From Actinophytocola xinjiangensis (GTDB lineage Bacteria > Actinomycetota > Actinomycetes > Mycobacteriales > Pseudonocardiaceae), in contig NZ_MSIF01000016.1 of assembly GCF_001921215.1 (NCBI RefSeq), positions 62,001 through 126,000 on the forward strand: a stretch of 64,000 nt of DNA, in the 5' to 3' direction. Under the pieces are notes generated by a model. The model searched no databases. It had not been told where the DNA came from and worked only from the letters and a program-made list of their open reading frames with translations. This document shows, piece after piece, positions 7,489-51,885 of this stretch (the stretch's first letter is position 1; the number at the start of each line of letters is the position of its first letter). The translations under genes were made by a program, and so were the position numbers.

Positions 7489-19893
<12,405 letters not shown>

Positions 19894-31855: not shown

Positions 31856-33109
31856 CTACGGCTGGTTCCCGAGGTCGCACGCCAACCGGATGAGGTCGGC
31901 GTCCGTGCCGGGGCGGCCCACCAGTTGCACGGCGATCGGGGCGCCGTGTTCGGCACCGGTCGCGGCCGGGACGGTGATCGCGGGCAGGCCGGCGAAGCTG
32001 GCCACCGGCGTGTAGCCGATCCTGGACTCGTAGTCCGGCTCGCCCGGGCCGGGGATCGTCGTACCGGAGCGGACGAACGAGCCGATCGGGCGGGGGACGT
32101 CGGGATCCATGGGCAACAGCCAGAAGTCGGCGTTGTGCGCGTCGAACAACGCGGGTACGGCGGCGCGCTGGGCGACCAGCCGCGCGCTGATCTCCGCGTG
32201 CCGCTCCGCGCTGACCTCGGCGCCCGAGCGCAACGCCGCCCAGGTCGACTCGAGCAGGTCGTCGTTCACCCAGTCGCCCCACACCTGGTGACCGCGCCAG
32301 GCGTCGGCCGAGCACAGCTCCCAGGCGATCGCCCGGCAGTCCCACAGTTCCCCGAGTCGCGCGCGGCCGACCTCGTGCCCCGCGTCCTTCAGCGCCGAGG
32401 CCACCGCCTCCACCACCGCCAGGATCTCGTCGGCACAGCCACCGTCGAAGACCTCCTCCACGACCGCGATCCGGCGGCGGCCCGGCCTGGGTACCTGCCC
32501 GAGGCCCAGGTACTCCCAGGCGAAGGCGAGGTCGTCGGCGGTCCTCGCCACCCAGCCCGCGGCGTCCATCTGCGGGGACAGCGGAAAGACACCCTCGAGG
32601 GCGGCCGGGTCGTGGGTGGTGCGCAGACCCACCACCCCGCAGTGCGCGGCGGGCCAACGCACCGAGCCGAGGACGTCGGTGCCCAACGACACGTCGCAGA
32701 TGTTCGCCGCGACCGACACCCCGGAGCCGGTGGACGAGCCGGCCGGGTCGATGTGCGGGAAGTTCGGGTTCACACAACCGGAGCCGACACCGATGTTCAG
32801 CTCGGTCGTGACCACCTTCGCGGTGACCTCGACGCCAACGCCCCGCAGCGGCGCTGCCGAGCGGGTCGGGTGGTGCCGGTACCGGCGCAGGCCCAGCCTG
32901 GTCGGGAAACCCGCCACGTCCACGGTGTCCTTGACGCCCAGCCGAACCGGGCCGGTCGCGGGACGCAGGTCCGCGCACGCGCGGTAACGAGCGTCGGCGG
33001 CGAAGCCCCAGTCGTTCGCGGCCGCGAGCCAGTCGGCCAGGTCCAGCTCACCACGCTCGATCAGCCGGACGCGTTCGGCCAGCGGCAGATCCAGCAACTC
33101 GTCGGACAT
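31856..33109 (-). CDS. Amidase signature family hydrolase
   Basis: A 417-residue amidase. The Ser-cisSer-Lys triad is visible: Lys60 in GVKDTVDVAG, Ser125/Ser126 in PAGSSTGSGV and nucleophile Ser149 in GTDVLGSVRWPAA, with spacing matching the family. ATG 33109 follows CGGAGGTAGGGCAC, a ribosome binding site that overlaps the previous gene's stop; the long frame further upstream is read-through. It is the last tightly packed gene of the minus-strand operon. It could release ammonia or hydrolyse an amide cap or protecting residue on the product, as in pathways that use a removable aminoacyl group, but the substrate is unknown. Confidence 0.92.
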   Translation of the reverse strand: MSDELLDLPLAERVRLIERGELDLADWLAAANDWGFAADARYRACADLRPATGPVRLGVKDTVDVAGFPTRLGLRRYRHHPTRSAAPLRGVGVEVTAKVVTTELNIGVGSGCVNPNFPHIDPAGSSTGSGVSVAANICDVSLGTDVLGSVRWPAAHCGVVGLRTTHDPAALEGVFPLSPQMDAAGWVARTADDLAFAWEYLGLGQVPRPGRRRIAVVEEVFDGGCADEILAVVEAVASALKDAGHEVGRARLGELWDCRAIAWELCSADAWRGHQVWGDWVNDDLLESTWAALRSGAEVSAERHAEISARLVAQRAAVPALFDAHNADFWLLPMDPDVPRPIGSFVRSGTTIPGPGEPDYESRIGYTPVASFAGLPAITVPAATGAEHGAPIAVQLVGRPGTDADLIRLACDLGNQP

Positions 33110-33114
33110 GTGCC

Positions 33115-33861
33115 CTACCTCCGTTGTGCCCTGAAGTCGCGGAGCGTCTCCGCGGTGGTCGGCGGTGTGCCGGTGCCGGACCAGCGGGCCGCCTCCCAGA
33201 CGAACGGGTTGGTGGTGCTCTCGGTGGCCAGGTCGCTGTCCTGCTCGTGCGCGGTGTACAGGACGGTCTCGCGTGGTTTGTCCAGCAGCGACCGCAGCGA
33301 GCGCAGGCAGTCGCCGCGGTCGCCGGTCGGCTGGTCCGTGCGGCCGATGGTGCCCGCGTAGAGCGTGTCGCCGACAAGGCAGTAGCCGGGCACGCGGAGG
33401 TCGCCCGGCAGGTTGAACATGACCGAGCCTTTGGTGTGTCCCGGGGTGTGGTCGACCCGCACGAGCACCCCGCCCAGCTCCAGCACGTCGCCGTGCGCCA
33501 ACGTGTCGACATCGGACGGTTCGCGCCACGTCCAGTCCCGGCCCAGGAACTCCTCGAACTTGGGGGCGACCTCCTCCCCGAGTCCGCCGAGCGGGTCGGA
33601 CAGCATCCAGTGGTCGTCGGGATGCAGGTACAGGGGAATCCCGTACCGCTCGGACACCTCGGTCACCGATCCGGTGTGGTCGAGGTGTCCGTGGGTGAGC
33701 AGCACCGCCCTGGGCCGCAGCCCGTACGCGGCCAGCGCGTCCGGCAGCTTGGCGGCCACCCCGAGACCGGGGTCCACCAGCACACAGTCACTGTCGCGTT
33801 CCTCGGCCACGAGGTAGCACTTGGTGCCGAACGCGTCGGCCTCCAGGGTCCTGACGAGCAT
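33115..33861 (-). CDS. MBL-fold metallo-hydrolase (glyoxalase II-like)
   Basis: A 248-residue metallo-beta-lactamase-fold protein with the metal motif THGHLDH (His57, His59, Asp61, His62), then HTPGHTKGSV and GDTLYAG for the later ligands. This pattern is that of glyoxalase II-like hydrolases, which often cleave thioesters. ATG 33861 shares one base with the preceding ATP-grasp stop (TGATG), and the amidase starts 5 bp downstream. In a pathway with a free acyl carrier protein it might act as an editing or releasing thioesterase; that is inference from context. Confidence 0.9.
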   Translation of the reverse strand: MLVRTLEADAFGTKCYLVAEERDSDCVLVDPGLGVAAKLPDALAAYGLRPRAVLLTHGHLDHTGSVTEVSERYGIPLYLHPDDHWMLSDPLGGLGEEVAPKFEEFLGRDWTWREPSDVDTLAHGDVLELGGVLVRVDHTPGHTKGSVMFNLPGDLRVPGYCLVGDTLYAGTIGRTDQPTGDRGDCLRSLRSLLDKPRETVLYTAHEQDSDLATESTTNPFVWEAARWSGTGTPPTTAETLRDFRAQRR

Positions 33862-35216: not shown

Positions 35217-35245
35217 GCCCCCTCCTTTCCCTACGATGTGGACGG

Positions 35246-36508
35246 TCACGACGCCTCGGGCATGGTCTTGAGCTTCGCGATCGGCGAGAGCACGAGCCAC
35301 AGCGCGGACAGGCAGAACGCGATCGCGATGAGGAACAGCGTCGGCCGGATCCCGATCAGCGCGCCCAGCGCGCCGCCGAGCAGCGCGCCGAGCGGCTGGC
35401 TCCCCCAGGTGACCGTGCGCATCGCGGCGACGACCCGGCCCAGCTGCTCCCGGGGGATGAGCATCTGCTGGAGCGTGGCGACGTTGGTGTTGCCGATGGT
35501 CATGAACGTTCCGCCGACGAAGAACATCGACATCATGATCGCCATCGCCAGCCAGGACGGGCCCATGGCCAGGGGCAACAACAGCTGCACGGCCGACGCC
35601 ACCCCGTACCCGACGACGATGACCCGGCCTGGCCCGAGTCGCACGGCCAGTCGTTTGGCCACCATCGAGCCGATCAACGCGCCGATCGCGCCGACGCCGA
35701 GCACGAATCCCAGCGCGGAGGCGCTCAGCCCGAGGGTCTGGAGGACGAACAGCGGCAGCATGGTGTTGCGGGCCAGGAAGCACAGGTTGACCAGGCCGGA
35801 GCGGATGGTGAGGAACCGCAGGTTCCGGTCGTGCGCGATGAACCGCAGCGACTCGCCGATCTCGCGCAGGGCACGGCGTTCCCTCGGTTCCGGTGGTTGC
35901 TCCTGGCGCCTGATCCCGCGCAGGCACACCAGCGAGACCAGTGCGCTGACCGCGCTCGTCAGCAGCGCGACGGGCAGCGTGACCAGTTGCACCAGGAGTC
36001 CGGCCACCGCGGGTCCGCCGGAACCGGTGACGACGATCGTCGCCTGCAGCTTGCTGTTCCCGTCGAGGAGCTGGTCCCGGTCGACCAGCGACGGCAGGTA
36101 CGCCGTACCTGAGACGTCGAACAGGACGGCGCAGCACCCCAGTAGGAACGCGACGACGAACAGGTGCCACAACGCGACCGAGCCGAACAGCGCGATCAGC
36201 GGAATGACGGCCAGCACCACGACCCGGCCCAGCTCCGAGAGCACGAGCAGGCCGCGTTTGCGGCTGCGGTCGATCCACACGCCCGCCGCCAGGGTGAGCA
36301 GCAGGTAGGGGGTGAAGGCCAGCGCGTTCACCACCCCGAGCTCGACCGGGGTGGCGTCCACGAGCAAAATCGCGGCCAGCGGCAGCACGAGCTCGGCGAC
36401 CTGCACGCCCAGGCGCGAGAAGCTCTGGCTCACCCAGTACCGGAGGAAGTCGCCGTGTCGCCACAGGGAGGCCGGTGTCGCCGGGGTGTCCCGGATGTCG
36501 GTGCTCAT
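35246..36508 (-). CDS. MFS transporter, probable product exporter
   Basis: A 420-residue membrane protein of the major facilitator superfamily, MFS_3/enterobactin-exporter-like. Twelve hydrophobic segments can be traced. The loop DRSRKRGLLVLSELGR after helix 2 is the MFS motif A region, and a cytoplasmic loop (RRQEQPPEPRERRALREI) splits the two halves. ATG 36508 overlaps the preceding ATP-grasp stop (ATGA). Its place in the middle of the biosynthetic operon points to export of the final compound and self-protection. Confidence 0.92.
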   Translation of the reverse strand: MSTDIRDTPATPASLWRHGDFLRYWVSQSFSRLGVQVAELVLPLAAILLVDATPVELGVVNALAFTPYLLLTLAAGVWIDRSRKRGLLVLSELGRVVVLAVIPLIALFGSVALWHLFVVAFLLGCCAVLFDVSGTAYLPSLVDRDQLLDGNSKLQATIVVTGSGGPAVAGLLVQLVTLPVALLTSAVSALVSLVCLRGIRRQEQPPEPRERRALREIGESLRFIAHDRNLRFLTIRSGLVNLCFLARNTMLPLFVLQTLGLSASALGFVLGVGAIGALIGSMVAKRLAVRLGPGRVIVVGYGVASAVQLLLPLAMGPSWLAMAIMMSMFFVGGTFMTIGNTNVATLQQMLIPREQLGRVVAAMRTVTWGSQPLGALLGGALGALIGIRPTLFLIAIAFCLSALWLVLSPIAKLKTMPEAS

Positions 36509-37518
36509 CGCCCTCGCCCCGTGCCGCTCAGGTGGGCGTCGAGCCGGCGCGCGTAGGCGCGGAACCGGCCGCCGACGATCCGGTCCACCGCGTCCCGGTC
36601 GTCGAACAGGCCGGCCACCGCACCGTCGGTCTCCAGCTCGGAGAACCACAGTCCGCCGTCGGCGGTGCGGAGCAGGTCGACGCACACGTAGGGCAGGTCG
36701 AAGCGGCGGTGCACCAAGTCGACCAGCTCGTGGACCGAAGCGTCCACTTCGGATCGCGTGTCGGCGTGGCCGCCCCGGCTGATGTTGGCGACGTGCGAGC
36801 CCGGCGAGCCCACCCGGTCGTACACCGCGACGATCTCCCCTTCGACGGCGACGACCCGGGTGTCGGCGACGACCTCACCGACCGACGGCTGCACGAGCAT
36901 CGTCGCGCCACTGCCCGAGGCCAGGCCCAGCAGCGCGTCCAACGTGGGCCGGTCGGGGCAGCGCACGCCGCCAAGCCCGCGCCCCCAGGACGCCGGTTTG
37001 ACGAAGGCCGGGAACCACTCGTCCGGGATCATCTCCTGGTAGGACAACAGGTTCAGGTCCCGCCCGGTGATCACCCGCACCGACGGGATCACCGGCACCG
37101 GTGAGCCGTCCAGCGCCTCGGCGGTGGCGAACTTGTCGTTGCACAGCAGCGCGGTCGACAGCGGGATCGCCAACCAGAAACCCTGTGCCGCCAACGAGTG
37201 CACCAGCGTCAGGCTCGCGAGGAGGTCGGCTTCGTGCAACGGCTCCGACCGGACGTCGTAGACCACGATGTCCCGGTCGGGCCGCAGCCGCTCGCCCTGC
37301 CAGCAGGCCGCGCCGTCGCGGAGCACCACGTGCTCGGGGACGGCGACGGCGAAGTCCAGCCCGTTGGCGTTGGCGACCCGTTCGTAGACGGGCCAGAACT
37401 CGTCCCGCTCCCAGGTCGCCAGGGTCGCCGAGGAACGATCCGGGAACAGGTAGAGGATCCGCCGGCCGGTCGCCTGGAACGCCGCCGGGATTCGGTCAGC
37501 GACCGAGGAGTGCGCCAC
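36505..37518 (-). CDS. RimK-like ATP-grasp ligase
   Basis: A 337-residue protein with an N-terminal Rossmann-like domain (RILYLFPDRSSATLATW) and an ATP-grasp core: DKFATAEALDGSPVPVIPS, FPAFVKPASWGRGLGGV for the ATP lysine and loop, TMLVQPSVGEVVADTRVV, and DLLRTADGGLWFSELETDG near the metal site. The last motif has Glu residues, but the usual Asn of the 'EVN' triad is replaced in ELETDG, so metal binding may differ. GTG 37518 lies within the last 23 bases of the SDR gene. It probably forms an amide bond between building blocks or with the peptide. Confidence 0.8.
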   Translation of the reverse strand: MAHSSVADRIPAAFQATGRRILYLFPDRSSATLATWERDEFWPVYERVANANGLDFAVAVPEHVVLRDGAACWQGERLRPDRDIVVYDVRSEPLHEADLLASLTLVHSLAAQGFWLAIPLSTALLCNDKFATAEALDGSPVPVIPSVRVITGRDLNLLSYQEMIPDEWFPAFVKPASWGRGLGGVRCPDRPTLDALLGLASGSGATMLVQPSVGEVVADTRVVAVEGEIVAVYDRVGSPGSHVANISRGGHADTRSEVDASVHELVDLVHRRFDLPYVCVDLLRTADGGLWFSELETDGAVAGLFDDRDAVDRIVGGRFRAYARRLDAHLSGTGRGR

Positions 37519-38236
37519 CGTTGACTCCGATCACTTGTCCGGTCAGCCACGACGCGTCCTCGGACGCCAGGAAACGCACCACTCCGGCGATGTCGGCCGG
37601 GCGCCCGGACCGGCCGAGCAGGGTCTGCGCGACGAGGATGTCGTGCCGTGCGGAACGGCCGGTCTCGTTGAAGAACTCGGTGTCCTGGACGTAGCCGGGG
37701 GACACGACGTTGACCGTGATTCCGTCCCTGCCACCCACCTTGGCGAGGTCGAACGCCCAGCCGGTGAGGCCGGCCTTGGCCGCCCCGTAGGCGTCACCGC
37801 CACCGCGCTGGCCCGCGATCGAGCCGATGCCGACCACCCGGCCGCCCGGTCTGCGCAGCGCCGGCCACAGCGCCTCGGTCACGTTCATCGTCGTCAACAG
37901 GTTCAGCTCGACCGTCCTGCGGAAGTCCTCGAACTTCCCGGTCAGGCCGGGTGCCACGTCCTTGACCGTCCCGCCGGCGTTGTTGACCAGCACGTCCACC
38001 GTCACGCCCGCGAACAGTTCACCCAGTCGCCGGACGTCGGTGGTGTCGGTCAGGTCCGCCACATGCGGGTGGATCGCGAGGTCCGGGTTCTCCTCGACCA
38101 CCCTGGCGAGGGGTTGCGCACGGCGCCCGACGATGTGCACCTGGGCGCCCTCGGCGGCCAACCGCTCCGCGACCGCGCGCCCGATTCCCGTCCCGCCGCC
38201 GGTCACGACCGCTGTCCTCCTGTCCACGGTGGTCAC
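37496..38236 (-). CDS. Short-chain dehydrogenase/reductase
   Basis: A 246-residue classical SDR. The cofactor motif TGGGTGIG is at residues 13-20, VGRRAQ follows beta-2 (suggesting NADPH), NNAGG is present, and the catalytic Ser (GSIAGQ) and Tyr-x3-Lys (YGAAK) are intact. The C-terminus GQVIGVNGG is typical. GTG 38236 overlaps the fused aminotransferase/ligase stop (GTGA). It may reduce or oxidise a beta-keto or hydroxy group on a carrier-bound building block. A FabG-like role is possible, but its substrate cannot be read from sequence. Confidence 0.93.
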   Translation of the reverse strand: MTTVDRRTAVVTGGGTGIGRAVAERLAAEGAQVHIVGRRAQPLARVVEENPDLAIHPHVADLTDTTDVRRLGELFAGVTVDVLVNNAGGTVKDVAPGLTGKFEDFRRTVELNLLTTMNVTEALWPALRRPGGRVVGIGSIAGQRGGGDAYGAAKAGLTGWAFDLAKVGGRDGITVNVVSPGYVQDTEFFNETGRSARHDILVAQTLLGRSGRPADIAGVVRFLASEDASWLTGQVIGVNGGALLGR

Positions 38237-40794: not shown

Positions 40795-41996
40795 GCGGTG
40801 CTCCCCGTCTCGGAGTCGCCGGCCACGGTCGCGCCCCAGCCGGCGTCCAGTGCGGTGGCGACGACGACGGCGGCCTGTTCGGCGTTGAGCCGGGCGTCGC
40901 ACACGGTGGTGTAGTGGTCAAGCCGGCGGTCCAGGTCCGGCGCGGAGCCGACGCACTCGACCACCGGCTCCGGCGTCGTCTCCAGGTGCAGCCCCGCGAG
41001 CGCCAGGCCGTGGTCGCGCAGCACGGCACAGCAGGCCGCCACCTCGGCGACGACGTCGTCCACGACCCGGGTCTTCTGCCCGTGCCGGTTGCGGAGGTTG
41101 TTGCCGTGCAGGGGATCGCACAGCCACAGCACGTCGCGGGCCAGCGGGCCCAACTCGTCCAGCAGCCGGGGCAGCGTCTGCCCGAGTCGCGGGCCCAGCC
41201 GCGTGATCAGGCTCAGCCGTCCCGGCGCGTGGCCGTGTGCGAGGCGGGTGACGAGCGTGGCCACGTCCGCCGCGGTCGCGTCCGGGCCGATCTTCACCCC
41301 GACCGGGTTGGTGATGGCCTCGGCGAACGCGATGTGCGCGCCGTCGACGGCGCGCGTGCGCTCGCCGATCCAGAGGAGGTGGCCGGAGGAGCCGTAGTCG
41401 CCGCCCTGGAGGTCGTCCTCCCGGACCAGGGCGTGCTCGTAGTCCAGCAGGAGCGCCTCGTGGCTGGCGTAGGTGACCGAGTGGGGGTGGTCGGTACCAC
41501 CGAAGGGGGGCAGCAGGTCCCGCAGGAACAGTGCGTCCAGCGCCGTCGCGGAGTGGTCGTAGGCGGCCAGCAGGCGCCGGGCGTCGGCGACCCTGGCCTC
41601 GGGGTGCTCGTCGGGCGAGTTCACCGCGTCGCCGCGATACACCGGCAGCGGTCCGTGCGCGGTGGTCTCCGTCGACTCGGAGCGCGGTTTCGCGTACTGC
41701 CCGGCGAACCTGCCGACGCGGACCACGGGGACGCCGGTCGCCACCTCCACCTGGTCGGCCAGGGCGGTCAACAGGTCGAGCTTGCCGGCCATCGTGTCGG
41801 TGAACCGTTCCGCGCAGTCGCCGGCCTGGATGACCAGCGCCGCGCCGGCGGCCACCGCGGCCAGCTCCCGTTGCAGCGAGTAGCACGACGACGGGGTGAC
41901 CAGGGCGGGGCGCCGGCGCAGTTCGGCGACCACCGCGGCCAGTTCCGTGCCCCAGTCGGGTTGCTGTACGGCCGGGAGCCGGGTCCTCTCCGCCAT
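40791..41996 (-). CDS. Class II 3-deoxy-7-phosphoheptulonate (DAHP) synthase
   Basis: A 401-residue plant-type DAHP synthase, the first step of the shikimate pathway (PEP + erythrose 4-phosphate). Metal and substrate motifs are present: QAGDCAERF (Cys), IGERTRAVDGAHIAFA, NPVGVKIGP, LWLCDPLHGN (His), LHLETTPEPVVECVG (Glu) and CDARLNAEQ (Asp). It is shorter than the roughly 450-residue housekeeping enzymes, as cluster copies often are. ATG 41996 shares a base with the MIO gene stop (TGATG). A second, pathway copy implies that the operon needs extra aromatic precursor. Confidence 0.95.
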   Translation of the reverse strand: MAERTRLPAVQQPDWGTELAAVVAELRRRPALVTPSSCYSLQRELAAVAAGAALVIQAGDCAERFTDTMAGKLDLLTALADQVEVATGVPVVRVGRFAGQYAKPRSESTETTAHGPLPVYRGDAVNSPDEHPEARVADARRLLAAYDHSATALDALFLRDLLPPFGGTDHPHSVTYASHEALLLDYEHALVREDDLQGGDYGSSGHLLWIGERTRAVDGAHIAFAEAITNPVGVKIGPDATAADVATLVTRLAHGHAPGRLSLITRLGPRLGQTLPRLLDELGPLARDVLWLCDPLHGNNLRNRHGQKTRVVDDVVAEVAACCAVLRDHGLALAGLHLETTPEPVVECVGSAPDLDRRLDHYTTVCDARLNAEQAAVVVATALDAGWGATVAGDSETGSTA

Positions 41997-43459
41997 CAGG
42001 ACACCTCCTGGTCGCCGAAGATCTCCTCGAGCCGGGCGGCGAGGTCCACGACCGCGTCCGCCATCGGCCGGTCGGTGGTGAGGTCGGGCGTGTCGTCGGC
42101 GAGGTCGGCCCACAGCGGCGTGCTGTCCCGTGGTCGCAGGCGATGGGTCCAGGCCAGTGCGTGGCCGAGCGACGCCGCGATCCACCACGCCCGGTCGAGC
42201 ATCTCCGCGACGGTGTTGGCCCCGTTCAGGGCCATCGGCACGTGGTCCTGGTTGTCCAGGTTCGTGGGCACCGGCGTGCACGACGCCGGGTAGGCGCGCT
42301 GGCGGATGGCGGCGAGGTGGGAGGTAGCGGCGATCTGCACACCGGCGAACCCGCTCGTCCGCCCGGCGTCGTGGGCCAGCAGGGGCGACAGACCACCGTT
42401 GCGGTGGGGGTTGAGCACCATGGCGAGTTGGCGTTCCACCAGGAAGGCCACCTGCTGCACGCACACCGCGTGCACCTCGCTCACGAGCGCCACCGGGGCG
42501 GCGTGGAAGTTGCCGCCGTGGTGGACGCGGCCGTCGACCACGACCGGGTTGTCCGTACAGCCCGCGGCCTCGGTCACCAGCACGCCCTCCTGCAGCCGAA
42601 CCTGGTCGAGCACCGCACCGATGACCTGCGGCGCGCACCGCAGCGAGTACGCCTCCTGGAACGGCCGTCCACCTGGCTCGGCCGGCTCGACGTGTTCGGC
42701 CCGGATCAGGTCGGCCGCCACCCGGTGCCCGTCGTGCCCCCGGACGGTGGCGATCTCCGCGCGGAACGGGGCGCCCACGCTGCCGAGCAGGGTCGCGAGC
42801 CGCCCGGTCGCGGCCGCCGCGAACCGCGCCAACGCGGTCAGTCGGGAGTGGTTGACCAGTGCCCTGGCCAGGGCGGCGGACGTGCCGTTGACGAACGCGA
42901 GCGCCGAGCGCGTCTCCCAGCACACCGGGGTCAGCCCCAGCTCACGGAGCACGTCGGCGGCCGGTTCGGGACGCCACTGGTCGCCTGTCCGTGTCCAGGC
43001 CTGCCGCTGGCCCGCCGCGGCCTGTGCCGCGTGCGCCAGTGGCACGAGGTCGCCGCTCGCACTGAGGCTGCCGTCCCGAGGGACCACGGGCGTGAACCCC
43101 GCGTTCCACTGTTCGGCGAGCAGCTCCCACGTTCTCAGGTCGACGCCGGAGTGCCCGAGACGCATGCCGCGCAGCCGCAGCCACACGGCCAGCCGGGTCA
43201 CCACGGGCGGCAGCGGCGGCCCCTGACCGACGGTGAGGTGGTTGATCAGCCCGGTGCCCTGGGTCCACGCGTCCGGGTCGGCGGCGTACTCGGCGAGCGG
43301 GCCGAAGCCCCTGCTGATCCCGTAGACCGGTCGGTGGGCCGCGATCTCGGCCAGGTCGGCACGGCCGCGGGACATCGCGGCCCGCTCCCGCGCGCTCAGC
43401 GAGAGATGGCCCTTCCAGCCAGCCTCGGCGATGACCTCGGCGACGCTGTCACAGCGCAT
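41996..43459 (-). CDS. MIO-type aromatic amino acid ammonia-lyase or aminomutase
   Basis: A 487-residue member of the HAL/PAL/TAL/aminomutase family. The MIO-forming triad is Ala134-Ser135-Gly136 in SLSASGDLVPLAH. Tyr46 in VYGISRGFGP, NGTSAALA, QEAYSLRCAPQVIG, TDNPVV and GGNFHA are all in family order. The usual TTGFG reads SRGFG. It removes ammonia from an aromatic amino acid to give an arylacrylate, or shifts the amino group to give a beta-amino acid; the sequence seen here does not settle which. ATG 43459 overlaps the ligase stop by 11 bases; a GTG 15 bases upstream is possible. The DAHP synthase that follows supports an aromatic substrate. Confidence 0.92.
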   Translation of the reverse strand: MRCDSVAEVIAEAGWKGHLSLSARERAAMSRGRADLAEIAAHRPVYGISRGFGPLAEYAADPDAWTQGTGLINHLTVGQGPPLPPVVTRLAVWLRLRGMRLGHSGVDLRTWELLAEQWNAGFTPVVPRDGSLSASGDLVPLAHAAQAAAGQRQAWTRTGDQWRPEPAADVLRELGLTPVCWETRSALAFVNGTSAALARALVNHSRLTALARFAAAATGRLATLLGSVGAPFRAEIATVRGHDGHRVAADLIRAEHVEPAEPGGRPFQEAYSLRCAPQVIGAVLDQVRLQEGVLVTEAAGCTDNPVVVDGRVHHGGNFHAAPVALVSEVHAVCVQQVAFLVERQLAMVLNPHRNGGLSPLLAHDAGRTSGFAGVQIAATSHLAAIRQRAYPASCTPVPTNLDNQDHVPMALNGANTVAEMLDRAWWIAASLGHALAWTHRLRPRDSTPLWADLADDTPDLTTDRPMADAVVDLAARLEEIFGDQEVS

Positions 43460-44459
43460 TCTCGACCGCCCCACGGGCCGCCGCGAGCAGCCGATCGATA
43501 CGCACCTTGCCGGTGGCGCTGCGGGGCACCGCCGCGACCCGGACGACCCGACGGGGCACCGGCACCCCCTGGAACGCCTTCGCCAGCGCGGCCTGGACGT
43601 CCTGGCCGGTCACCAGGCCGGTGTCGTCGGCGTAGAACAGTTCGTAGTGCTCGGCCCGCACCTCGTCCCGCCTGGGCAGGCACACCAGGTCCACGCCCGG
43701 GAAGCGCACCCGCACCTCGTGCTCGACGTCGTCCAGACGCAGCCGACGACCATTGATCTTGATCAGCCGGGTGGCCCGGCCGAGCAGTTCGAACTGGCGC
43801 TTCCCGACGGGACGCACGAGGTCCTCCAGCGACACGGGTTCGGCCGGCCGGTCCTGGCCCGCCAGGCGGGCGTTGCGTGGACCACGGACCCGCAACGGTT
43901 GTTCCGTGGGGGAAACCGGGTCGGTCACCAGGTCGGTCACCAGGTCGACGTCGGGGAACAGCGTCCACACCGACGCGCGCGCCGGGCGGGGCGACAGTGT
44001 CCGGTGGGCGACCGCGCCGGTCTCGGTCGAGCCGAGGATCTCCACGGCCCGGAACCCGCTTCCGGCGAGTCTGGTCAGCGTCTGCCGCGTGGCCGGTGTG
44101 ACGGGGCCCGTGCTGTGCACCGCGATCACGCCCCCCAGGTCGCCGGCGAGGCTGCGCAGCATGAGCCAGGTGGACGGCAGGCAGACCAGCAGGACGCGCT
44201 CACCCGGCGTGCGGTCCGGCACCTGCCACGGGGTGTCCCAGAGGTGCCTCACCGGCACGTTCAGGTGCGCCGGCAGCAGGTCACCGAGCAGTCGGCCGTA
44301 CAGGTGCGTGGTGGGCGCGTAGTTCACCACGCGGTCGACCGGGCCGAGGACCTCGGCCAGCAGCGTCACCTCGGAGAACAGCTGGTCCCTTGTCCGGGTC
44401 CACACGACGGACTCGCCACAGGTGCCGGAGGTCGCGAACTCCTCGTCCGTCGAGGTCAC
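43449..44459 (-). CDS. Short adenylate-forming (AMP-binding) enzyme
   Basis: A 336-residue member of the ANL superfamily that begins directly at the phosphate-loop motif: EEFATSGTCGES near residue 6. LGSTETGAVAHR (A5), LGRATRLIKINGRRLRLDDV (A8) and RSATGKVRIDRLL with the C-terminal lysine (A10) are present. The N-terminal 150-180 residues of normal family members are missing. GTG 44459 overlaps the ACP stop (GTGA), so the short form appears to be the real protein. It likely activates an acid, such as the MIO product, and loads it onto the adjacent ACP. Confidence 0.85.
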   Translation of the reverse strand: MTSTDEEFATSGTCGESVVWTRTRDQLFSEVTLLAEVLGPVDRVVNYAPTTHLYGRLLGDLLPAHLNVPVRHLWDTPWQVPDRTPGERVLLVCLPSTWLMLRSLAGDLGGVIAVHSTGPVTPATRQTLTRLAGSGFRAVEILGSTETGAVAHRTLSPRPARASVWTLFPDVDLVTDLVTDPVSPTEQPLRVRGPRNARLAGQDRPAEPVSLEDLVRPVGKRQFELLGRATRLIKINGRRLRLDDVEHEVRVRFPGVDLVCLPRRDEVRAEHYELFYADDTGLVTGQDVQAALAKAFQGVPVPRRVVRVAAVPRSATGKVRIDRLLAAARGAVENAL

Positions 44460-44749
44460 CGCTCGCTCCGCAGCAGGGCACGGTCTTCCAGCCGGTCGCC
44501 AACGAACCGGGCCATCCGGGCGACCGTGGCGAACCAGTGCCGCACGTCGTGCGCCACGAAGTCGACCTCGATGTCGAACTCGCCCTCGATCGCGGTGATG
44601 CACTCCATCGCGGTGAGGCTGTCGTAGCGCTCGCCGAGGGCCTGCGCGAGATCGGCGTCCTGAGCGAGGTGGTCGACCGCGTCACCGAGGGTTCGGCCCA
44701 GCACGGACCGGATCCGCGTGACGATCTCGGTGTCGGTCAGCTGTGTCAT
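44456..44749 (-). CDS. Free-standing acyl carrier protein
   Basis: A 97-residue carrier protein. The phosphopantetheine Ser is residue 44 in ERYDSLTAMECITAIEGE, followed by FDIEV as in ACP helix III. The motif is DSL with Tyr before Asp, unlike the GFDSL of the PKS domains in this window. It is longer at the C-terminus than a simple ACP, ending RLEDRALLRSER. ATG 44749 overlaps the tautomerase stop (ATGA) and its own stop overlaps the ligase GTG. It probably carries the activated aromatic or diamino unit for later transfer. Confidence 0.92.
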   Translation of the reverse strand: MTQLTDTEIVTRIRSVLGRTLGDAVDHLAQDADLAQALGERYDSLTAMECITAIEGEFDIEVDFVAHDVRHWFATVARMARFVGDRLEDRALLRSER

Positions 44750-45171: not shown

Positions 45172-45179
45172 GGCGCACC

Positions 45180-46853
45180 TCAGGACAGGGTCAGGGCGGG
45201 CAGTTCGCACGACGGATCCACGAACCGCTTCCGGAGCAGTCGATGCAGGCATCCGGCGAGGGGGTCGCTGTCGCCGGGGTCCAGCGGGCTCCACGAGGCA
45301 CCCGCCGGCGTCGCGGTCCTGGCCAGGAACGCGTCCACGCCCTCGACCGGGATCCCGAACCGGTCGGCGGTGGCGACCGCCTCGTAGGTGGACAGCAGGT
45401 CCGGCAGCCGGTTGCCCTGGTTCGCCCACCCACCGCCACGGACCCGGTGACGGGCAAGCAGTTCGGCGACCACGCGCGGGGTCGGTCCACCGAGGACGCG
45501 GGCCGCGTGCAGCCCGGCGCGCAGCGTCGCGGGGGCGCCGGGCACGTTGCCGTGCCCGTCGTCGGTCGCACACCGCCGCACGAACGCGGCGAGCCGCCCG
45601 GTGTCCACCGTCCCGTCCAGCAACCTGGCGATCTCGACGGCCGACGCGGTCGACACGAGGTCGGAGCCGCGGCCGTGCCAGTACCCGAAGCCACCGTCCG
45701 GGTTCTGCAGTCGCGCCAACCAGTCCCGGATCGCCTGCCGGGAAGGTCCGTCGTCCGGGAAGGCGCCCGCTGCCAGCGCCCACAGCGTGCAGCGGATCTC
45801 GGCACCCCGACCCGGCATGTACATCAGCCCGCCCTCGTTGGGCAGTTGGCAGGCCTCAAGCCAGCGCCGCATCCGTGGCAACCCGGGGTCGTCGGGAGCC
45901 GACGACAGGGCACCCGCGGCCACCCGCAACGCGTCGGCCGCCAGTTCCGGCTCCCGGTAGGTGTATCCGCCGCCGGGACAGGCCATCCCGGCCAGCGCCG
46001 CCACCACCGCGTCCGCGACGTCGTGGGGGACGCCGCCGAGGTCCCTCAGGGCGCCGACCGCGCTGAACGCGGCCCACACGTCCGCGACCGGATAGCCGTC
46101 CCAGCGCGTGAAACCACCGTCGCCCAAGCGTCCGAGGATCCAGGTCACGCAGTCCCCGGCCGGCGCCGCGCCCAGCATCGCCAGCGCGCCGACCGCGCGG
46201 TAGGTCGCCCACAGACAGGGCACCTGCGCGTCCGGACCGAACCGGAACCCACCACCCGCGACCTGCTGGCGCCGCAGCCAGGCCACCAGGGCCGGCACGT
46301 CCCACGGGAGTTCGGTGTTCAGCGCCCGCCAGGCCGCCACTCCGTAGTAGCAGGCGCGGACGTCCGCGTCACCGTGTTCCGGCGACCAGCTCAGGCCACC
46401 GTCGGCGGTCTGCAGGGCGGCCAGCCACGCCAGGAGCCGGTCGCGGTCGGGCACGTCGTCGCCGCACAGTTCGATCGCGGTCCTGGTCGAGAAGTGCGTG
46501 GCCCACACGTCGGGCGCCTGGCCGGGCATCATGGCGTAGGCGGCGCCGGCGGAACTGTCCGACCAGGTGCCGCGCACCCACGCCGCGGTCCGGTCGCTGT
46601 CCGGCAGCGTCTCGCCGAGGGCGGCGAGGGAGGCCGCGCAGTAGAACGTCGCCCAAGCGTCCGAGGGCATGCCCCGGCTCCAGGCGTAGCCGCCGTCCGC
46701 GTTGCGCCGGGCGCGCAGGTAGTCCGCGCTGTCGGCCCGTCCCGGCGCGTCGTCGAGGCGCCCCAGCCAGGTCAGGGTGCGGATCGCCGCGTAGGTACAC
46801 CACAGGTCGGCGGTGCCGGTGATCGCCACCGAGGGGAACGCCTCGGTCCTCAC
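45180..46853 (-). CDS. QW-repeat alpha/alpha-toroid protein (prenyltransferase/squalene cyclase-like repeats)
   Basis: A 557-residue protein made of about eight repeats spaced roughly 50 residues apart, each with a QW-like core: NADGGYAW, TADGGLSW, VAGGGFRF, LGDGGFTRW, CPGGGYTY, NEGGLMY, NPDGGFGYW and VRGGGWAN. Such repeats build the alpha/alpha barrel of prenyltransferase beta subunits and squalene/terpene cyclases. The DxDD acid motif of class II terpene cyclases is absent, so terpene cyclisation is unlikely. LanC lanthipeptide cyclases share this toroid fold, but their Cys-Cys-His zinc ligands are not evident. GTG 46853 overlaps the ligase stop (GTGA). Its function is unknown. Confidence 0.75.
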   Translation of the reverse strand: MRTEAFPSVAITGTADLWCTYAAIRTLTWLGRLDDAPGRADSADYLRARRNADGGYAWSRGMPSDAWATFYCAASLAALGETLPDSDRTAAWVRGTWSDSSAGAAYAMMPGQAPDVWATHFSTRTAIELCGDDVPDRDRLLAWLAALQTADGGLSWSPEHGDADVRACYYGVAAWRALNTELPWDVPALVAWLRRQQVAGGGFRFGPDAQVPCLWATYRAVGALAMLGAAPAGDCVTWILGRLGDGGFTRWDGYPVADVWAAFSAVGALRDLGGVPHDVADAVVAALAGMACPGGGYTYREPELAADALRVAAGALSSAPDDPGLPRMRRWLEACQLPNEGGLMYMPGRGAEIRCTLWALAAGAFPDDGPSRQAIRDWLARLQNPDGGFGYWHGRGSDLVSTASAVEIARLLDGTVDTGRLAAFVRRCATDDGHGNVPGAPATLRAGLHAARVLGGPTPRVVAELLARHRVRGGGWANQGNRLPDLLSTYEAVATADRFGIPVEGVDAFLARTATPAGASWSPLDPGDSDPLAGCLHRLLRKRFVDPSCELPALTLS

Positions 46854-48160
46854 CACGTGTCCACGACCCGGAAGTTCGAGCGCTTCCAGTTCTTGAGCGA
46901 GCCACCGCTCTTCGTGGTGCTGGGCAGCGCGTTGACGAACAGGACCTGGTCGCAGTCGAGCCCGGCCCGGTCGCGGAACGCGGCGCGCACCGCGCTCACC
47001 GACGCCTCCTCACCGGCGCGGTCGGCCTCCGGTGACCGTTCCAGCAACAGCCGGAACCCCGTCCCCGCCCGGTCGATCTCCACCAGGTAGCCCAGCGCCG
47101 TGGTCGCGCCGTAGACGATCTCCTCGACCAGGTGCGGCGAGAGTGTCCCGTTCCGCACCCGTTGACCGTCCGAGCTGCGCCCGAGCACCGTCACGACCGG
47201 ACTCACCCGGCCGCAGTCGCAGCCGGTGGACAGCGAGACCTCGTCGCCGGTGTCGTACCGCAGCAGCGGCCGCGCGTGCAGGTTCAACGGGGTGACGACG
47301 AGCCGGCCCGTGCCGGGCGCCGTCCACGGTCGCGGGCCCCCGTCGCCGGCCAGCTCGAAGTGGTTGGCGGCGGTCAGCAGGTGCAGACCACCGGCCTGGC
47401 AGGTCGCCGCCAGGGTTCCGGTCTCGGTACTGCCGTAGCTGGCGTCGAGCGCCGTGGCGCCCCACCACTGGCCGAGCCGGGTGCGCAGCGCCGGTACGCA
47501 CACCTCGCCGAGCAGCATGATCGACCGCACCGACCGGCTCAACTCCGCCAGTTGCCCGCGCCTGAGGTACAGACCGGTGGCCTGCAGCGCGACCCCGGGC
47601 GAGAGGAACAGGACCGTCGGCTCGAAGTTCGCGACCAGGGTGGCCAGGCGGTCCCAGTCCGAGATACCGGTGGCGAAGGGGTAGGCCCGGGCGACGGGCA
47701 CGTCCAGGTACTCGCACACCGACGTCACCAGGTCGCCCGCCGGGACGACGTCCGACGGGAGCAGGTTGATCACCCGGTCCCCCGCGCCGATGACCTCGCC
47801 CCACGCGCTCGCCACGGACACGGTGTTCCAGATGATGTCGGCCGCGAGCCGGGGCGTCGGTGTCGACCGGCCGGTCGTGCCGCTGGTCTCGTAGTACTTC
47901 GTGCTCTCGTCGAGCCGCGCGGCGCCGAACCGCCAGGGGTCCGCCTTGAGCTGGTCCTTCGTCGTGACGGGAAGGGCGGTCAGCGACGCCCACGAGTAGT
48001 CGCCGATGTCCCGGTAGGCAGGTGTCGCCCGTGCCCGGGTCCAGCAGGCGGCTGTCTTCTCCCGGTAGAACTGCTCGGTCACCGGTCGCCCGTGAAGCGC
48101 GCGGAACTCCCGCTGCGCGTCGAGAACGGTTTCCAGCCGTTCCTTCGAGTTGATGATCAC
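46850..48160 (-). CDS. PaaK-like adenylate-forming ligase
   Basis: A 436-residue phenylacetate-CoA-ligase-like enzyme of the ANL superfamily. It has KYYETSGTTGRSTPTPR (phosphate loop), ALDASYGSTETGTLAA, LLRYDTGDEVSL, a CDCGR Cys pair typical of PaaK-like proteins, and a C-terminal STTKSGGSLKNWKRS with the lysine-rich tail. GTG 48160 follows AAGGACACG; the frame upstream covers the previous gene and is read-through. It sits between an ATP-grasp gene (10 bp) and the toroid gene (overlap). It likely adenylates a carboxylic acid for transfer to the ACP, CoA or an amine. It is distinct in sequence from the PaaK domain fused to the aminotransferase. Confidence 0.9.
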   Translation of the reverse strand: MIINSKERLETVLDAQREFRALHGRPVTEQFYREKTAACWTRARATPAYRDIGDYSWASLTALPVTTKDQLKADPWRFGAARLDESTKYYETSGTTGRSTPTPRLAADIIWNTVSVASAWGEVIGAGDRVINLLPSDVVPAGDLVTSVCEYLDVPVARAYPFATGISDWDRLATLVANFEPTVLFLSPGVALQATGLYLRRGQLAELSRSVRSIMLLGEVCVPALRTRLGQWWGATALDASYGSTETGTLAATCQAGGLHLLTAANHFELAGDGGPRPWTAPGTGRLVVTPLNLHARPLLRYDTGDEVSLSTGCDCGRVSPVVTVLGRSSDGQRVRNGTLSPHLVEEIVYGATTALGYLVEIDRAGTGFRLLLERSPEADRAGEEASVSAVRAAFRDRAGLDCDQVLFVNALPSTTKSGGSLKNWKRSNFRVVDTW

Positions 48161-48170
48161 ACCGTGTCCT

Positions 48171-49505
48171 TCAGGTGGTGGAGTGGAAGACGCAGCCCAC
48201 GTGCGACCCGTCCCCGAGGTAGCGGACGTCCTGCGCCCGGTCGAGCAGCCCCTTGACGAAACCGCCGGCGAGGCCACCGCCGGTGACGAACATTCCCCAG
48301 TGAAGGAAGCACGCGGAGTGCGGATCACCCGGCGCCGCACCGGGAAACCGCTCGGCCACCGACCGGGCCCTGCGCTGCACGACGAACTCGCCACGCAGCG
48401 CCGTCCGCACGTCCACCGCCCATTCCTCGGGTGTGCGCAGCCAGCCGGCGACCACGCCCAGGCCGGCGTGGCCGATGCTCGGCTTCAGCACCAACTCCTC
48501 GCGATGGGCCAGCACGTACTCGGTGATCGCCGGGTCCGCCATCGACCGGGTCCACGGGAGCACCCGGTCGATGATCTCCAGCTCGCCGGGCGTGAACCGC
48601 TGCCGGTTGCGCTCGTCACTGACCAGCGCCATGCACGTCTTGGTCCCGTAGAGGTCGGCGTTGACCGGGGAGAACAGCCCGACGGCGCCGGCGCGGACCG
48701 CTTCGATGAGCGTCGCCAGCACCTCGGGCGCCGCCGGATCGTCGGCGATCGCCTTGAGCAGGAACACCCGGTAGACGATGTCGATCCGGACGTCGCCGAG
48801 GAACAACCCGTCCCCGGTCAGCGACAGCTCGTCGAGGGTGCCCGCCACGACCCGGAAGCCCAGGTCCACCATCAGGTCGACGAACAGCGAGGAGTTGACC
48901 GAGATGGGCGTGGTCGGCCACTCGACCAGGGCGATGACCGGGCGGTCCGCCGGCCCGTGGCCGGTCGTGCTCAGCAGGGTGTCGACCATCGACGCGAGCG
49001 GGTCCACGTGGTAGAGCCCCGCGCTCTCGGCGAACGGTCCGAACGCGTCGTCGGTCAGGACCGCGCGGCACAGCTCACCGAACTCGAACGATCCGAGGGA
49101 GCTGGAGGTGTTGTACTCGACCATCTGGAACCCCGACGGCGTGTTCACGAGGTCGGCGCGGCCCAGTGGGACCGGTGGTCCCGACAGGTGTTCCAGGGCA
49201 TGGGCAACGCTGCGCTGGGTCCACCCGATGGCGCGGGCGAAGGCCAGCTGGTCGCCGTCGAAGAGTCGTTGCGGGAGCGACTGGAGAATGGACAACATCG
49301 CCGGCAGGTCCGTGCCGAGCTGCCGGGTCTGCGCGTCGTCGAGAATGGTGGGGCGGGCCAGCAACGGCCGGGTGAACCACTCCCGAAAACGGGCGTACCC
49401 AGACAGGTCGGTGTTCAAAGGGCGGCATTCAGACCGATCGAAGAACGCCTTTGTCTGGTCGTTCTCCACAATGTGCGCGGCAGGCGCCAAGGCCAACCCA
49501 GACAT
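48171..49505 (-). CDS. Glutathionylspermidine-synthase-like ATP-grasp protein
   Basis: A 444-residue protein and first gene of the minus-strand operon. The central segment GFQMVEYNTSSSLGSFEFGE resembles the substrate/metal loop of glutathionylspermidine synthase and circularly permuted ATP-grasp enzymes. The later segment ELVLKPSIGHAGLGVVAG carries the ATP lysine and glycine loop, and FVVQRRA follows. Members form amide bonds between a peptide carboxylate and an amine. ATG 49505 follows GGGGATGATGAATC. It is transcribed from the region shared with the divergent kinase/lyase/peptide genes, so the two sets are probably co-regulated. Confidence 0.78.
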   Translation of the reverse strand: MSGLALAPAAHIVENDQTKAFFDRSECRPLNTDLSGYARFREWFTRPLLARPTILDDAQTRQLGTDLPAMLSILQSLPQRLFDGDQLAFARAIGWTQRSVAHALEHLSGPPVPLGRADLVNTPSGFQMVEYNTSSSLGSFEFGELCRAVLTDDAFGPFAESAGLYHVDPLASMVDTLLSTTGHGPADRPVIALVEWPTTPISVNSSLFVDLMVDLGFRVVAGTLDELSLTGDGLFLGDVRIDIVYRVFLLKAIADDPAAPEVLATLIEAVRAGAVGLFSPVNADLYGTKTCMALVSDERNRQRFTPGELEIIDRVLPWTRSMADPAITEYVLAHREELVLKPSIGHAGLGVVAGWLRTPEEWAVDVRTALRGEFVVQRRARSVAERFPGAAPGDPHSACFLHWGMFVTGGGLAGGFVKGLLDRAQDVRYLGDGSHVGCVFHSTT

Positions 49506-49620: not shown

Positions 49621-49644
49621 GGTTGTACCGCCGGCGGTACAACC
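49621..49644. promoter_or_regulatory. Perfect 24-bp palindrome in the divergent promoter region
   Basis: GGTTGTACCGCC is followed at once by its exact reverse complement. It lies between the ATP-grasp start (49505) and the kinase start (49746), roughly midway, so a bound regulator could control both directions. It resembles a dimeric operator site. Its GTACAA half-site echoes the TetR operators near 28.5 kb, but the match is short. Confidence 0.7.
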
Positions 49645-51700: not shown

Positions 51701-51885
51701 CTCTGCGAAATCTCATGACCGGCTACACGGCCTATACCGACGCCCAGGAGTTGACGACCACGCGCGGCTCCCACCAGAACGGAGCGGTCACCACGATTGC
51801 ACATCCGACGACCACCGTGGTGCTGTTGTGCCACGATCCCGCCACCTCGGGAACGGTACCGATCTCAGTGCGCCGGGTCGACTGA
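51697..51885 (+). CDS. Candidate RiPP precursor peptide, Ser/Thr-rich with one Cys
   Basis: A 62-residue peptide translationally coupled to the HopA1-family lyase (ATGA). It has 17 Ser/Thr (27%) and a single Cys45. A likely leader begins MTLRNLMTGYTAYT; the C-terminal half holds TTTVVLLCHDPATSGT, with Thr38-40 before and Thr50, Ser51 and Thr53 after the Cys, the layout expected if dehydrated residues are captured by one thiol. The last residues SVRRVD overlap, on the opposite strand, the final codons of the SARP gene, so the C-terminus is under dual constraint. It has no signal peptide and no match to a known precursor that I recognise. The cleavage site cannot be placed. Confidence 0.7.
   Translation: MTLRNLMTGYTAYTDAQELTTTRGSHQNGAVTTIAHPTTTVVLLCHDPATSGTVPISVRRVD

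What the first reader, a model, noticed from the sequence alone, without database searches (positions are those of the whole stretch)
31856..49505. A 15-gene, almost gapless operon that looks built to add activated non-ribosomal units to a peptide
Fifteen minus-strand genes run from 49505 to 31856, most joined by 1-23 nt overlaps or gaps of 10 bp or less. They include three unrelated ATP-grasp ligases, two PaaK-like ligase domains, a short adenylate-forming enzyme, a free ACP, a MIO enzyme, a class II DAHP synthase, a DABA-type aminotransferase, an SDR, a toroid protein, an exporter, an MBL hydrolase and an amidase. There is no NRPS condensation domain or PKS in it. Divergence from the kinase/lyase/peptide set across 240 bp suggests one pathway: a RiPP joined to aromatic and diamino-acid units by ATP-grasp chemistry, in the spirit of pheganomycin, which uses an ATP-grasp ligase on ribosomal peptides.
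Basis: inference. Interest (0 to 1): 0.92.

Follow-up and report, generated by a model that had tools for sequence, protein, structure and literature searches.

The report
Peptide-synthetase-free aromatic amide gene cluster
A run of 15 tightly packed bacterial genes looks like an apparently undescribed pathway that builds a tyrosine-derived amide compound without the usual giant peptide-making enzymes, and its five-gene heart, including a terpene-cyclase-shaped protein of unknown job, recurs in other actinobacteria without the neighbouring lantibiotic-type genes.

Summary
Confirmed: 15 minus-strand genes (49505-31856) whose 14 junctions are 1-23 nt overlaps or gaps of at most 10 bp. The divergent set is a class V lanthipeptide trio (LxmK, HopA1-type lyase, LxmA leader).

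Comparison splits the operon. A core (PaaK1, toroid, tautomerase, ACP, short AMP ligase) is complete in 13 other loci and cut by a contig end in a 14th, mostly with MIO enzyme, SDR, amidase or DAHP synthase. ATP-grasps 1 and 2 accompany it in four. The aminotransferase, fused to a swapped-in ligase domain, was seen only here.

A weaker link survives: a perfect 24-bp palindrome in the shared 240 bp, and a 29-33 aa peptide gene in the same slot of the two nearest relatives.

Best reading: an apparently undescribed, NRPS-free pathway joining a tyrosine-derived aryl unit to amino acids with discrete ligases. Product and toroid reaction are unknown.

The parts
48171..49505 (-). g1: circularly permuted ATP-grasp ligase (444 aa)
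   Evidence: Pfam CP_ATPgrasp_2 21.9 bits, below cut-off 32; only solved match at E<=0.5 a putative glutathionylspermidine synthase, E 0.097; 40-61% in 4 of 15 other loci
46850..48160 (-). g2 (PaaK1): PaaK-type adenylate-forming ligase; core gene
   Evidence: AMP-binding 33.3 bits, cut-off 29.9; nearest solved chains AjiA1 and the 6siw PaaK-like ligase; C-terminus (T/S)K(S/A)G(G/A)(S/A)xKxWKR in 15 of 15 loci with the gene, window included
45180..46856 (-). g3: alpha-alpha toroid protein (558 aa); core gene
   Evidence: Prenyltrans 126.6 bits; about half of the model matches GGTase/FTase beta subunits, squalene-hopene cyclase also matches; no DxDD and no D-x-C(Y/F/W) motif in 4 of 4 sequences
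   Evidence: Pro after Met in 14 of 14; model pLDDT 87.5, best folds cis-CaaD/Cg10062 with TM about 0.55-0.6; Pfam Tautomerase_3 below cut-off
44456..44749 (-). g5: free acyl carrier protein; core gene
   Evidence: PP-binding 27.5 bits, cut-off 20.8; DSL motif
43449..44459 (-). g6: short adenylate-forming enzyme; core gene
   Evidence: NCBIfam 4-coumarate-CoA ligase 73 bits, far below cut-off 335, matched from profile position 100 on; P-loop, GSTE, A8-like and TGK motifs present
41996..43459 (-). g7: MIO ammonia-lyase/aminomutase, probably tyrosine-acting
   Evidence: Lyase_aromatic 352.6 bits; best solved match 2o6y, with His-Leu aligned at what I recall as the selectivity pair; ASG present; best NCBIfam model is a histidine ammonia-lyase subfamily, 299.6 against cut-off 524
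40791..41996 (-). g8: short class II DAHP synthase
   Evidence: 374.7 bits; best solved match 6bmc, 405 aa
38233..40794 (-). g9: DABA-type aminotransferase fused to a PaaK-like domain (PaaK2)
   Evidence: Aminotran_3 + AMP-binding in one 853-aa ORF; TIGR00709 446.2 bits, cut-off 401.6; aminotransferase in 0 of 15 other loci
37496..38236 (-). g10: SDR oxidoreductase
   Evidence: adh_short_C2 140.6 bits
36505..37518 (-). g11: RimK-like ATP-grasp ligase
   Evidence: RimK 33.3 bits, cut-off 21; solved matches of its profile are RimK/LysX-type and D-Ala-D-Ala ligases
35246..36508 (-). g12: MFS exporter
   Evidence: MFS_1 122.2 bits
33861..35249 (-). g13: ATP-grasp of the L-amino-acid ligase type
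   Evidence: ATP-grasp_4 50.4 bits, cut-off 27; only solved match at E<=1e-5 L-amino acid ligase BL00235
33115..33861 (-). g14: metallo-beta-lactamase-fold hydrolase
   Evidence: Lactamase_B 92.1 bits; HxHxDH
31856..33109 (-). g15: amidase-signature amidase
   Evidence: Amidase 135.3 bits; Lys/Ser/Ser motifs
49621..49644 (.). perfect 24-bp palindrome in the 240-bp divergent region, operator-like
   Evidence: one site in the genome when 16 of its bases are searched with up to 2 mismatches
49746..51885 (+). divergent neighbour: class V lanthipeptide trio LxmK, HopA1-type lyase, LxmA-leader peptide; probably not part of the operon's pathway
   Evidence: NCBIfam LxmK 412 bits (cut-off 315), LxmA leader 28.9 (25); HopA1 130 bits (22.7)
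51865..55161 (-). AfsR/SARP-type regulator beyond the trio
   Evidence: an AfsR-type gene lies directly upstream of the operon in G300 and Micromonospora, but also near two of five LxmK loci

Best explanation
The operon is a stand-alone biosynthetic gene cluster for a small tyrosine-derived amide, made with discrete ligases instead of an NRPS. Shown by sequence: gene order, families, intact motifs where tested, and recurrence of the core. Inferred: g8 raises shikimate flux; g7 turns tyrosine into p-coumarate (or beta-tyrosine); g6 activates that aryl acid and loads it on ACP g5; tautomerase g4, SDR g10 and toroid g3 alter the ACP-bound or PaaK1-bound aryl unit (the toroid step is unknown, but its gene is always paired with PaaK1); PaaK1 (g2) forms an ester or amide from an acyl-adenylate, as NatL2-type PaaK enzymes do; the aminotransferase part of g9 makes a diamino-acid-type unit that its fused adenylation domain activates; g13, g11 and g1 form further amide bonds; g14 and g15 hydrolyse or edit; g12 exports. 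The lanthipeptide trio next door is a separate system that shares at most regulation.
For: 15 genes with overlapping or near-touching junctions. Across 15 other loci: PaaK1 and toroid 14, tautomerase, ACP and AMP ligase 13, SDR 12, MIO 11, amidase 9, DAHPS 8, PaaK2 8. The loci were chosen by toroid or grasp2, so toroid presence is by selection; SDR and MIO matches at 32-51% may be other subfamilies. PaaK1 is next to the toroid on the same strand in 15 of 15 loci that have both, window included. PaaK2 at E<=1e-40 occurs in 4 of 249 family genomes, the window and three others, and all four are among the 11 of 249 with the toroid. Of eight MIO enzymes scanned, two exceed the tyrosine 2,3-aminomutase cut-off (823.8 and 816.7 against 501) and three are nearest the BagA/FevW tyrosine ammonia-lyase model but below its cut-off. 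PaaK1's nearest solved relatives are AjiA1 and the 6siw ligase; NatL2 joins aryl acids as an ester from the acyl-adenylate, without CoA (PMC7204872, passages; that 6siw is NatL2 is recalled). Shared window genes are 57-68% identical to G300's except PaaK2 at 35%, a swap together with the fused aminotransferase. LxmK/HopA1/LxmA do not co-occur.
Against: No product, transcript or enzyme assay. MIO is missing at the G300 and G925 loci (G300 has only 37-39% MIO genes elsewhere), and no DAHPS was matched at several loci, so neither is obligatory. The remaining three MIO enzymes scanned, the window's among them, pass no cut-off, and their best model is a histidine ammonia-lyase subfamily, so tyrosine as substrate, and lyase versus mutase, are not proven. 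The AMP ligase matches the coumarate ligase model far below cut-off. The palindrome and the peptide slot speak for some link with ribosomal peptides.
Confidence: 0.5

Rival explanations
1. One hybrid pathway: the LxmA peptide is dehydrated by LxmK and the HopA1-type lyase, and the operon makes aryl and diamino-acid units that its ATP-grasp enzymes attach to the peptide.
For: 240-bp divergent arrangement with a perfect 24-bp palindrome, one site in the genome. In G300 and Micromonospora sp. NBRC 107566 the slot between an AfsR-type gene and the operon holds a 33- or 29-aa peptide gene, 52% identical to each other, in G300 followed by a RiPP-maturation B12 radical SAM (TIGR03975, 616 bits); Micromonospora keeps two short remnants of it. 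G925 has a small ORF, a radical SAM and a C39-peptidase transporter in its locus.
Against: HopA1 in 0 of 14 related genomes; LxmK/HopA1/LxmA in 0 of 15 loci; five LxmK loci without the operon, two of them with an AfsR-type gene of their own, so the AfsR neighbour is unspecific. The peptide homology rests on two sequences; tblastn found nothing at 1e-3. Related radical SAM genes occur in 26 of 160 genomes of G300's genus while the toroid is in 2 of 160. The consensus promoter scan found no site in the 240 bp.
Confidence: 0.17
2. Precursor-supply cassette for another product: the operon makes an aryl/beta-amino acyl starter that is handed to the modular PKS at 1-20436 in the same window.
For: A modular PKS and P450 genes lie in the same window; ACP plus adenylation enzyme plus MIO is a known starter-unit arrangement (recalled).
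Against: No PKS was recognised by eye in the predicted genes listed for the related loci (only the first residues of each were read, no domain search); ABC transporter genes, a TetR gene and a P450 on the other strand lie between; three ATP-grasps and an exporter suggest a finished product.
Confidence: 0.12
3. The core uses the MIO product only indirectly: the AMP ligase and ACP activate another chorismate-derived aryl acid supplied through DAHPS, and the MIO product enters at a later ligase.
For: DAHPS accompanies core loci whether the MIO is aminomutase-like (five loci) or nearest BagA (G993 and G1015, not G954); G300 keeps DAHPS but has no MIO at the locus.
Against: Micromonospora keeps the MIO (71%) with only a 34-residue DAHPS match; MIO is commoner than DAHPS across loci (11 against 8 of 15).
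Confidence: 0.15

Closest known systems
NatL2/AjiA1 PaaK-type condensing ligases (benzoxazole pathways)
   Same: PaaK1 is nearest AjiA1 and the 6siw ligase among solved structures; both are PaaK-family adenylate-forming enzymes of 436 aa
   Different: No NatAM-type amidohydrolase match here (the amidase is PF01425); the core adds toroid, tautomerase, ACP and a second AMP ligase
Bagremycin/ferroverdin pathway (NCBIfam models BagA/FevW tyrosine ammonia-lyase and BagE/FevW synthetase)
   Same: Best NCBIfam model for PaaK1 is BagE/FevW (92.5 bits); MIO of G993, G954 and G1015 is nearest the BagA model
   Different: All are below the curated cut-offs (800 and 1000); no toroid or ATP-grasp is recalled in those clusters
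Pheganomycin (PGM1 ATP-grasp joining a nonproteinogenic amino acid to a small peptide; PMC8939145, passages)
   Same: Idea of ATP-grasp ligation in a cluster with a small peptide gene nearby
   Different: No peptide found inside the operon, no PGM1 match among solved structures, no type III PKS or amidinotransferase in the 15 genes
Class V lanthipeptides (lexapeptide, cacaoidin)
   Same: The divergent trio passes LxmK, HopA1 and LxmA-leader cut-offs
   Different: It is a neighbour; five other LxmK loci do not carry the operon
C-1027-type beta-tyrosine units (tyrosine aminomutase, adenylation enzyme, free carrier; recalled)
   Same: Two relatives of the core carry MIO enzymes above the TIGR03832 cut-off together with a free ACP and an AMP ligase
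   Different: The AMP ligase is short and nearest coumarate ligases; the window MIO does not pass TIGR03832 (204.6 against 501)

Membership tests
NRPS cluster | condensation domain | tested here: not met
   none reported in the 15 proteins
Class V lanthipeptide (divergent trio) | LxmK-type kinase above curated cut-off | tested here: met
   412 against 315 bits
Class V lanthipeptide (divergent trio) | HopA1-type lyase | tested here: met
   130 against 22.7 bits
Class V lanthipeptide (divergent trio) | second APH-like protein (LxmX/CaoX) beside the trio | not tested
   no search was made for it
Class V lanthipeptide (operon as a member) | operon genes recur in class V clusters | tested here: not met
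   0 of 5 other LxmK loci (one 28% aminotransferase match aside); HopA1 in 0 of 14 related genomes
Pheganomycin-type | PGM1-type ATP-grasp | tested here: inconclusive
   no PGM1 chain among the matches of g1, g11, g13; that PGM1 is in the PDB is recalled
Pheganomycin-type | precursor peptide gene in the operon | tested here: inconclusive
   a pattern search of the window found no ORF like the relatives' peptides, but an unlike precursor would be missed; LxmA lies across the divergence
Bagremycin/ferroverdin | BagE/FevW synthetase above cut-off | tested here: not met
   92.5 against 800
Benzoxazole (NatL2/NatAM) | NatAM-type amidohydrolase | tested here: not met
   no amidohydrolase match; the amidase is PF01425
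Tyrosine 2,3-aminomutase | TIGR03832 above cut-off | tested here: not met
   window 204.6 against 501; the G081 and G978 enzymes pass with 823.8 and 816.7
Tautomerase superfamily | Pro1 and beta-alpha-beta fold | tested here: met
   Pro after Met in 14 of 14; fold matches to cis-CaaD at TM about 0.55-0.6
Class II terpene cyclase / protein prenyltransferase (toroid) | DxDD, or zinc-binding D-x-C | tested here: not met
   neither motif in 4 of 4 sequences; the fold is shared

The most novel reading that the evidence does not exclude
The five-gene core is a portable aryl-unit factory whose product is ligated to peptides of different origin: here to a class V lanthipeptide across the shared palindrome, in the G300 lineage to a 33-aa peptide altered by a B12 radical SAM, in other genomes to small peptides built by discrete ligases. 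That would be a RiPP/nonribosomal hybrid with an exchangeable peptide slot, using a terpene-cyclase-fold enzyme on a non-terpenoid substrate.
Probability: 0.15. Interest if true: 0.92.

Novelty: new variant of a known kind. Interest (0 to 1): 0.62.

Why it matters
It defines an apparently undescribed cluster family with a recognisable signature (the PaaK1-toroid pair, adjacent in 15 of 15 loci that have both, window included), gives genome mining a handle on pathways that NRPS/PKS-based rules could miss, and poses a clean question: what does a squalene-cyclase/prenyltransferase-fold protein without either catalytic motif do in an aromatic amide pathway? The ligase and aminotransferase swaps between relatives make the building-block logic testable.

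Tried and rejected
Toroid as lanthionine cyclase: rejected, it occurs in 14 other loci without a HopA1 match, 13 of whose genomes were searched and lack HopA1, and the 50 structural matches displayed are prenyltransferases and squalene-hopene cyclases. Toroid as ordinary terpene cyclase or protein prenyltransferase: no DxDD or D-x-C in 4 of 4. The toroid model is only moderate (mean pLDDT 72.3). SARP-type heptamer repeats in the 240 bp: none by a script of my own; no consensus sigma-70 site there either. Viral contigs for the toroid: none. Plasmids: four Streptomyces plasmids hold distant grasp1 relatives (31-36%) and the two inspected do not carry the operon; grasp2 none. Phylum sample with the toroid profile: only the window in 396 at E<=1e-30, although the family holds more, so a sparse sample misses it. 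Six of ten paper searches asked for the gene combination and gave no paper; the library holds open-licence PMC papers only, so this is weak evidence of absence from print. Whether the G300 radical SAM belongs to the pathway stays open: relatives at E<=1e-60 occur in 26 of 160 genomes of that genus, and among the 25 loci read the peptide motif was found only in G300's own (pattern-based, other precursors would be missed). Palindromes in other loci: listed but cut at 12 per locus, so no count is drawn from it.


Full report
1. What is there. The region 49505-31856 holds 15 minus-strand genes with the GC3 phase of coding sequence. With the starts the 14 junctions are 11 overlaps (1-23 nt) and 3 gaps (5, 8, 10 bp). 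Family searches give, in transcription order: CP-ATP-grasp (g1), PaaK-like ligase (g2, PaaK1), toroid (g3), tautomerase (g4), ACP (g5), short AMP ligase (g6), MIO enzyme (g7), class II DAHP synthase (g8), aminotransferase-PaaK2 fusion (g9), SDR (g10), RimK-like ATP-grasp (g11), MFS (g12), L-amino-acid-ligase-type ATP-grasp (g13), MBL hydrolase (g14), amidase (g15). The catalytic motifs tested are present in 10 of 15 proteins; the ATP-grasps and the MFS protein were not tested. The window lies in a 9.54-Mb, 72-contig genome.

2. The divergent set. The genes at 49746-51885 are a class V lanthipeptide trio by curated cut-offs: LxmK 412 (cut-off 315), LxmA leader 28.9 (25), HopA1 130 (22.7). In print, the kinase and the HopA1-type lyase of cacaoidin dehydrate the precursor peptide (PMC9486802, passages). 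The 240 bp between the two directions contain a perfect 24-bp palindrome, 49621-49644; a search of the whole genome with 16 of its bases and up to 2 mismatches finds this site alone, while the reversed control pattern matches 6 times per strand. A consensus sigma-70 scan found no promoter-like site in these 240 bp.

3. Relatives. A RimK-like ATP-grasp profile (g11 with two relatives) scanned over the genome collection by two short peptide patterns, so not exhaustively, gave 47 loci. Three are close: Micromonospora sp. NBRC 107566, Cellulomonas sp. KH9 and Streptomyces sp. DH12 (55-67%). The other 44 (33-38%) are a different kind of cluster in Kitasatospora, Nonomuraea and others: PaaK2 in 44 of 44, an MFS match in 43, an SDR match in 42, no toroid, tautomerase, ACP or g6 match within the roughly 20 kb held. 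A toroid profile gave 11 of 249 genomes in the window's family, counting the window, 2 of 160 in the genus of G300, counting G300, and only the window in a phylum sample of 396. None of the five congeners has it.

4. Gene content (15 loci besides the window, Cellulomonas included, selected by toroid or grasp2; tblastn at 55 bits or more): PaaK1 14, toroid 14, tautomerase 13, ACP 13, AMP ligase 13, SDR 12, MIO 11, amidase 9, DAHPS 8, PaaK2 8, grasp2 5, MFS 5 (one at 27%), grasp3 5 (one at 30%), grasp1 4, MBL 3, aminotransferase 0, LxmK/HopA1/LxmA 0. So the five-gene core is complete in 13; in G850 it is cut by the contig end, and in G925 its genes are scattered over about 20 kb. DH12, Micromonospora and G850 are cut by contig ends, so absences there are not firm. 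PaaK1 lies next to the toroid on the same strand in 15 of 15 loci that have both, window included, and its C-terminus (T/S)K(S/A)G(G/A)(S/A)xKxWKR is shared by all 15. In trees of toroid and PaaK1 the window groups with G300 and Micromonospora (support 100/98 and 97/98).

5. What varies. Five loci carry an MIO enzyme with an RSH selectivity region; the two of them scanned with NCBIfam exceed the tyrosine 2,3-aminomutase cut-off (823.8 and 816.7 against 501). Three loci carry an enzyme nearest the BagA/FevW tyrosine ammonia-lyase model, below its cut-off. The window enzyme and those of G753 and DH12 pass no cut-off, and their best model is a histidine ammonia-lyase subfamily (297-315 against 524); the window enzyme aligns His-Leu with the His-Leu of 2o6y, which I recall as the selectivity pair of the Rhodobacter tyrosine lyase. 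So a tyrosine-derived unit is likely but not proven, and deaminated or beta-amino is open. Against G300 the 12 other shared genes are 57-68% identical, PaaK2 only 35%: the ligase domain was replaced, together with the fused aminotransferase seen in none of the other 15 loci. This suggests, as inference, that PaaK2 selects the building block that the aminotransferase makes. PaaK2 at E<=1e-40 is found in 4 of 249 family genomes (the window and three others), all four also toroid genomes (in G850 on another contig).

6. Single enzymes. The tautomerase model (pLDDT 87.5) matches cis-CaaD and Cg10062 (TM about 0.55-0.6), enzymes of 3-chloroacrylate and acetylenecarboxylate, and the N-terminal Pro is present in 14 of 14. 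The toroid model (pLDDT 72.3) matches GGTase/FTase beta subunits over about half its length and squalene-hopene cyclase at TM about 0.4, yet lacks DxDD and D-x-C. PaaK1's best solved relatives are AjiA1 (6wuq) and a PaaK-like ligase (6siw); 6siw is NatL2 as far as I recall. NatL2 joins two aryl acids as an ester from the acyl-adenylate and is locked against CoA (PMC7204872, passages). DAHPS is nearest 6bmc, which I recall as the phenazine-pathway type.

7. Is it one pathway with the lanthipeptide? Two facts keep a weaker link alive. First, the palindrome. Second, the slot between an AfsR-type gene and the operon holds, in G300, a 33-aa ORF with an AGGAGG upstream, then a TIGR03975 radical SAM/DUF5825 gene, and in Micromonospora a 29-aa ORF (52% identical) with two short remnants of that radical SAM gene. 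The peptide homology rests on two sequences, and tblastn did not find it. Two of the five LxmK loci have an AfsR-type gene too, so the window's AfsR may belong to the trio. Related radical SAM genes are common in G300's genus (26 of 160), so recruitment by neighbourhood is possible. G925 has a 71-aa ORF, a radical SAM gene and a C39-peptidase transporter in its locus, unproven as a RiPP set.

8. Verdict. The operon is real and most likely makes its own small aromatic amide with discrete ligases; the core cassette appears undescribed within my limited literature searches. The exact product and the toroid reaction are unknown. The lanthipeptide trio is most likely a neighbour, perhaps co-regulated.

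Noticed in passing
49746-51885 (+): Minimal class V lanthipeptide trio (LxmK, HopA1-type lyase, 62-aa LxmA-leader peptide with a single Cys); its end overlaps the end of the convergent AfsR gene by 21 nt.
   Followed up: partly
49621-49644: Perfect 24-bp palindrome GGTTGTACCGCCGGCGGTACAACC in the divergent promoter region; one site in the genome.
   Followed up: partly
1-24542: Modular type I PKS (two very long minus-strand ORFs) beside three P450 genes; the one piece scanned (7489-12600) holds KS, AT, KR and carrier domains.
   Followed up: partly
30439-31773 (-): A 444-aa protein, weakly TPR-like, 82 bp below the amidase on the same strand; no match in the 15 related loci.
   Followed up: no
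L025-L068: 44 actinobacterial loci with a grasp2-PaaK2-MFS-SDR module; the three inspected (L028, L031, L048) add, variously, a free adenylation domain, amine oxidase, 4HBT thioesterase, AvaA6-like ligase or a DUF3050 protein: another cluster family.
   Followed up: partly
L101-L108: Core loci with aminomutase-type MIO lie beside genes that by eye resemble AsnB, SbnA/SbnB-like diaminopropionate genes and a CDGSH protein (not searched), plus a haem-oxygenase-like protein.
   Followed up: partly
L022 and L088: Micromonospora sp. NBRC 107566 copy looks partly decayed: radical SAM remnants, DAHPS reduced to a 34-residue match, SDR match split in two frames (may also be assembly errors).
   Followed up: partly
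L113 7377-16100: G925 locus: 71-aa ORF, radical SAM, JmjC-type oxygenase, C39-peptidase ABC transporter and separate condensation and adenylation proteins with a carrier-like ORF between, next to core genes.
   Followed up: partly
L020 4318-4419 (-): 33-aa ORF MKKKTILIDYRARARARQSPMAIIAIQTERKTK between AfsR and a B12 radical SAM/DUF5825 gene, upstream of the G300 operon on the same strand.
   Followed up: partly
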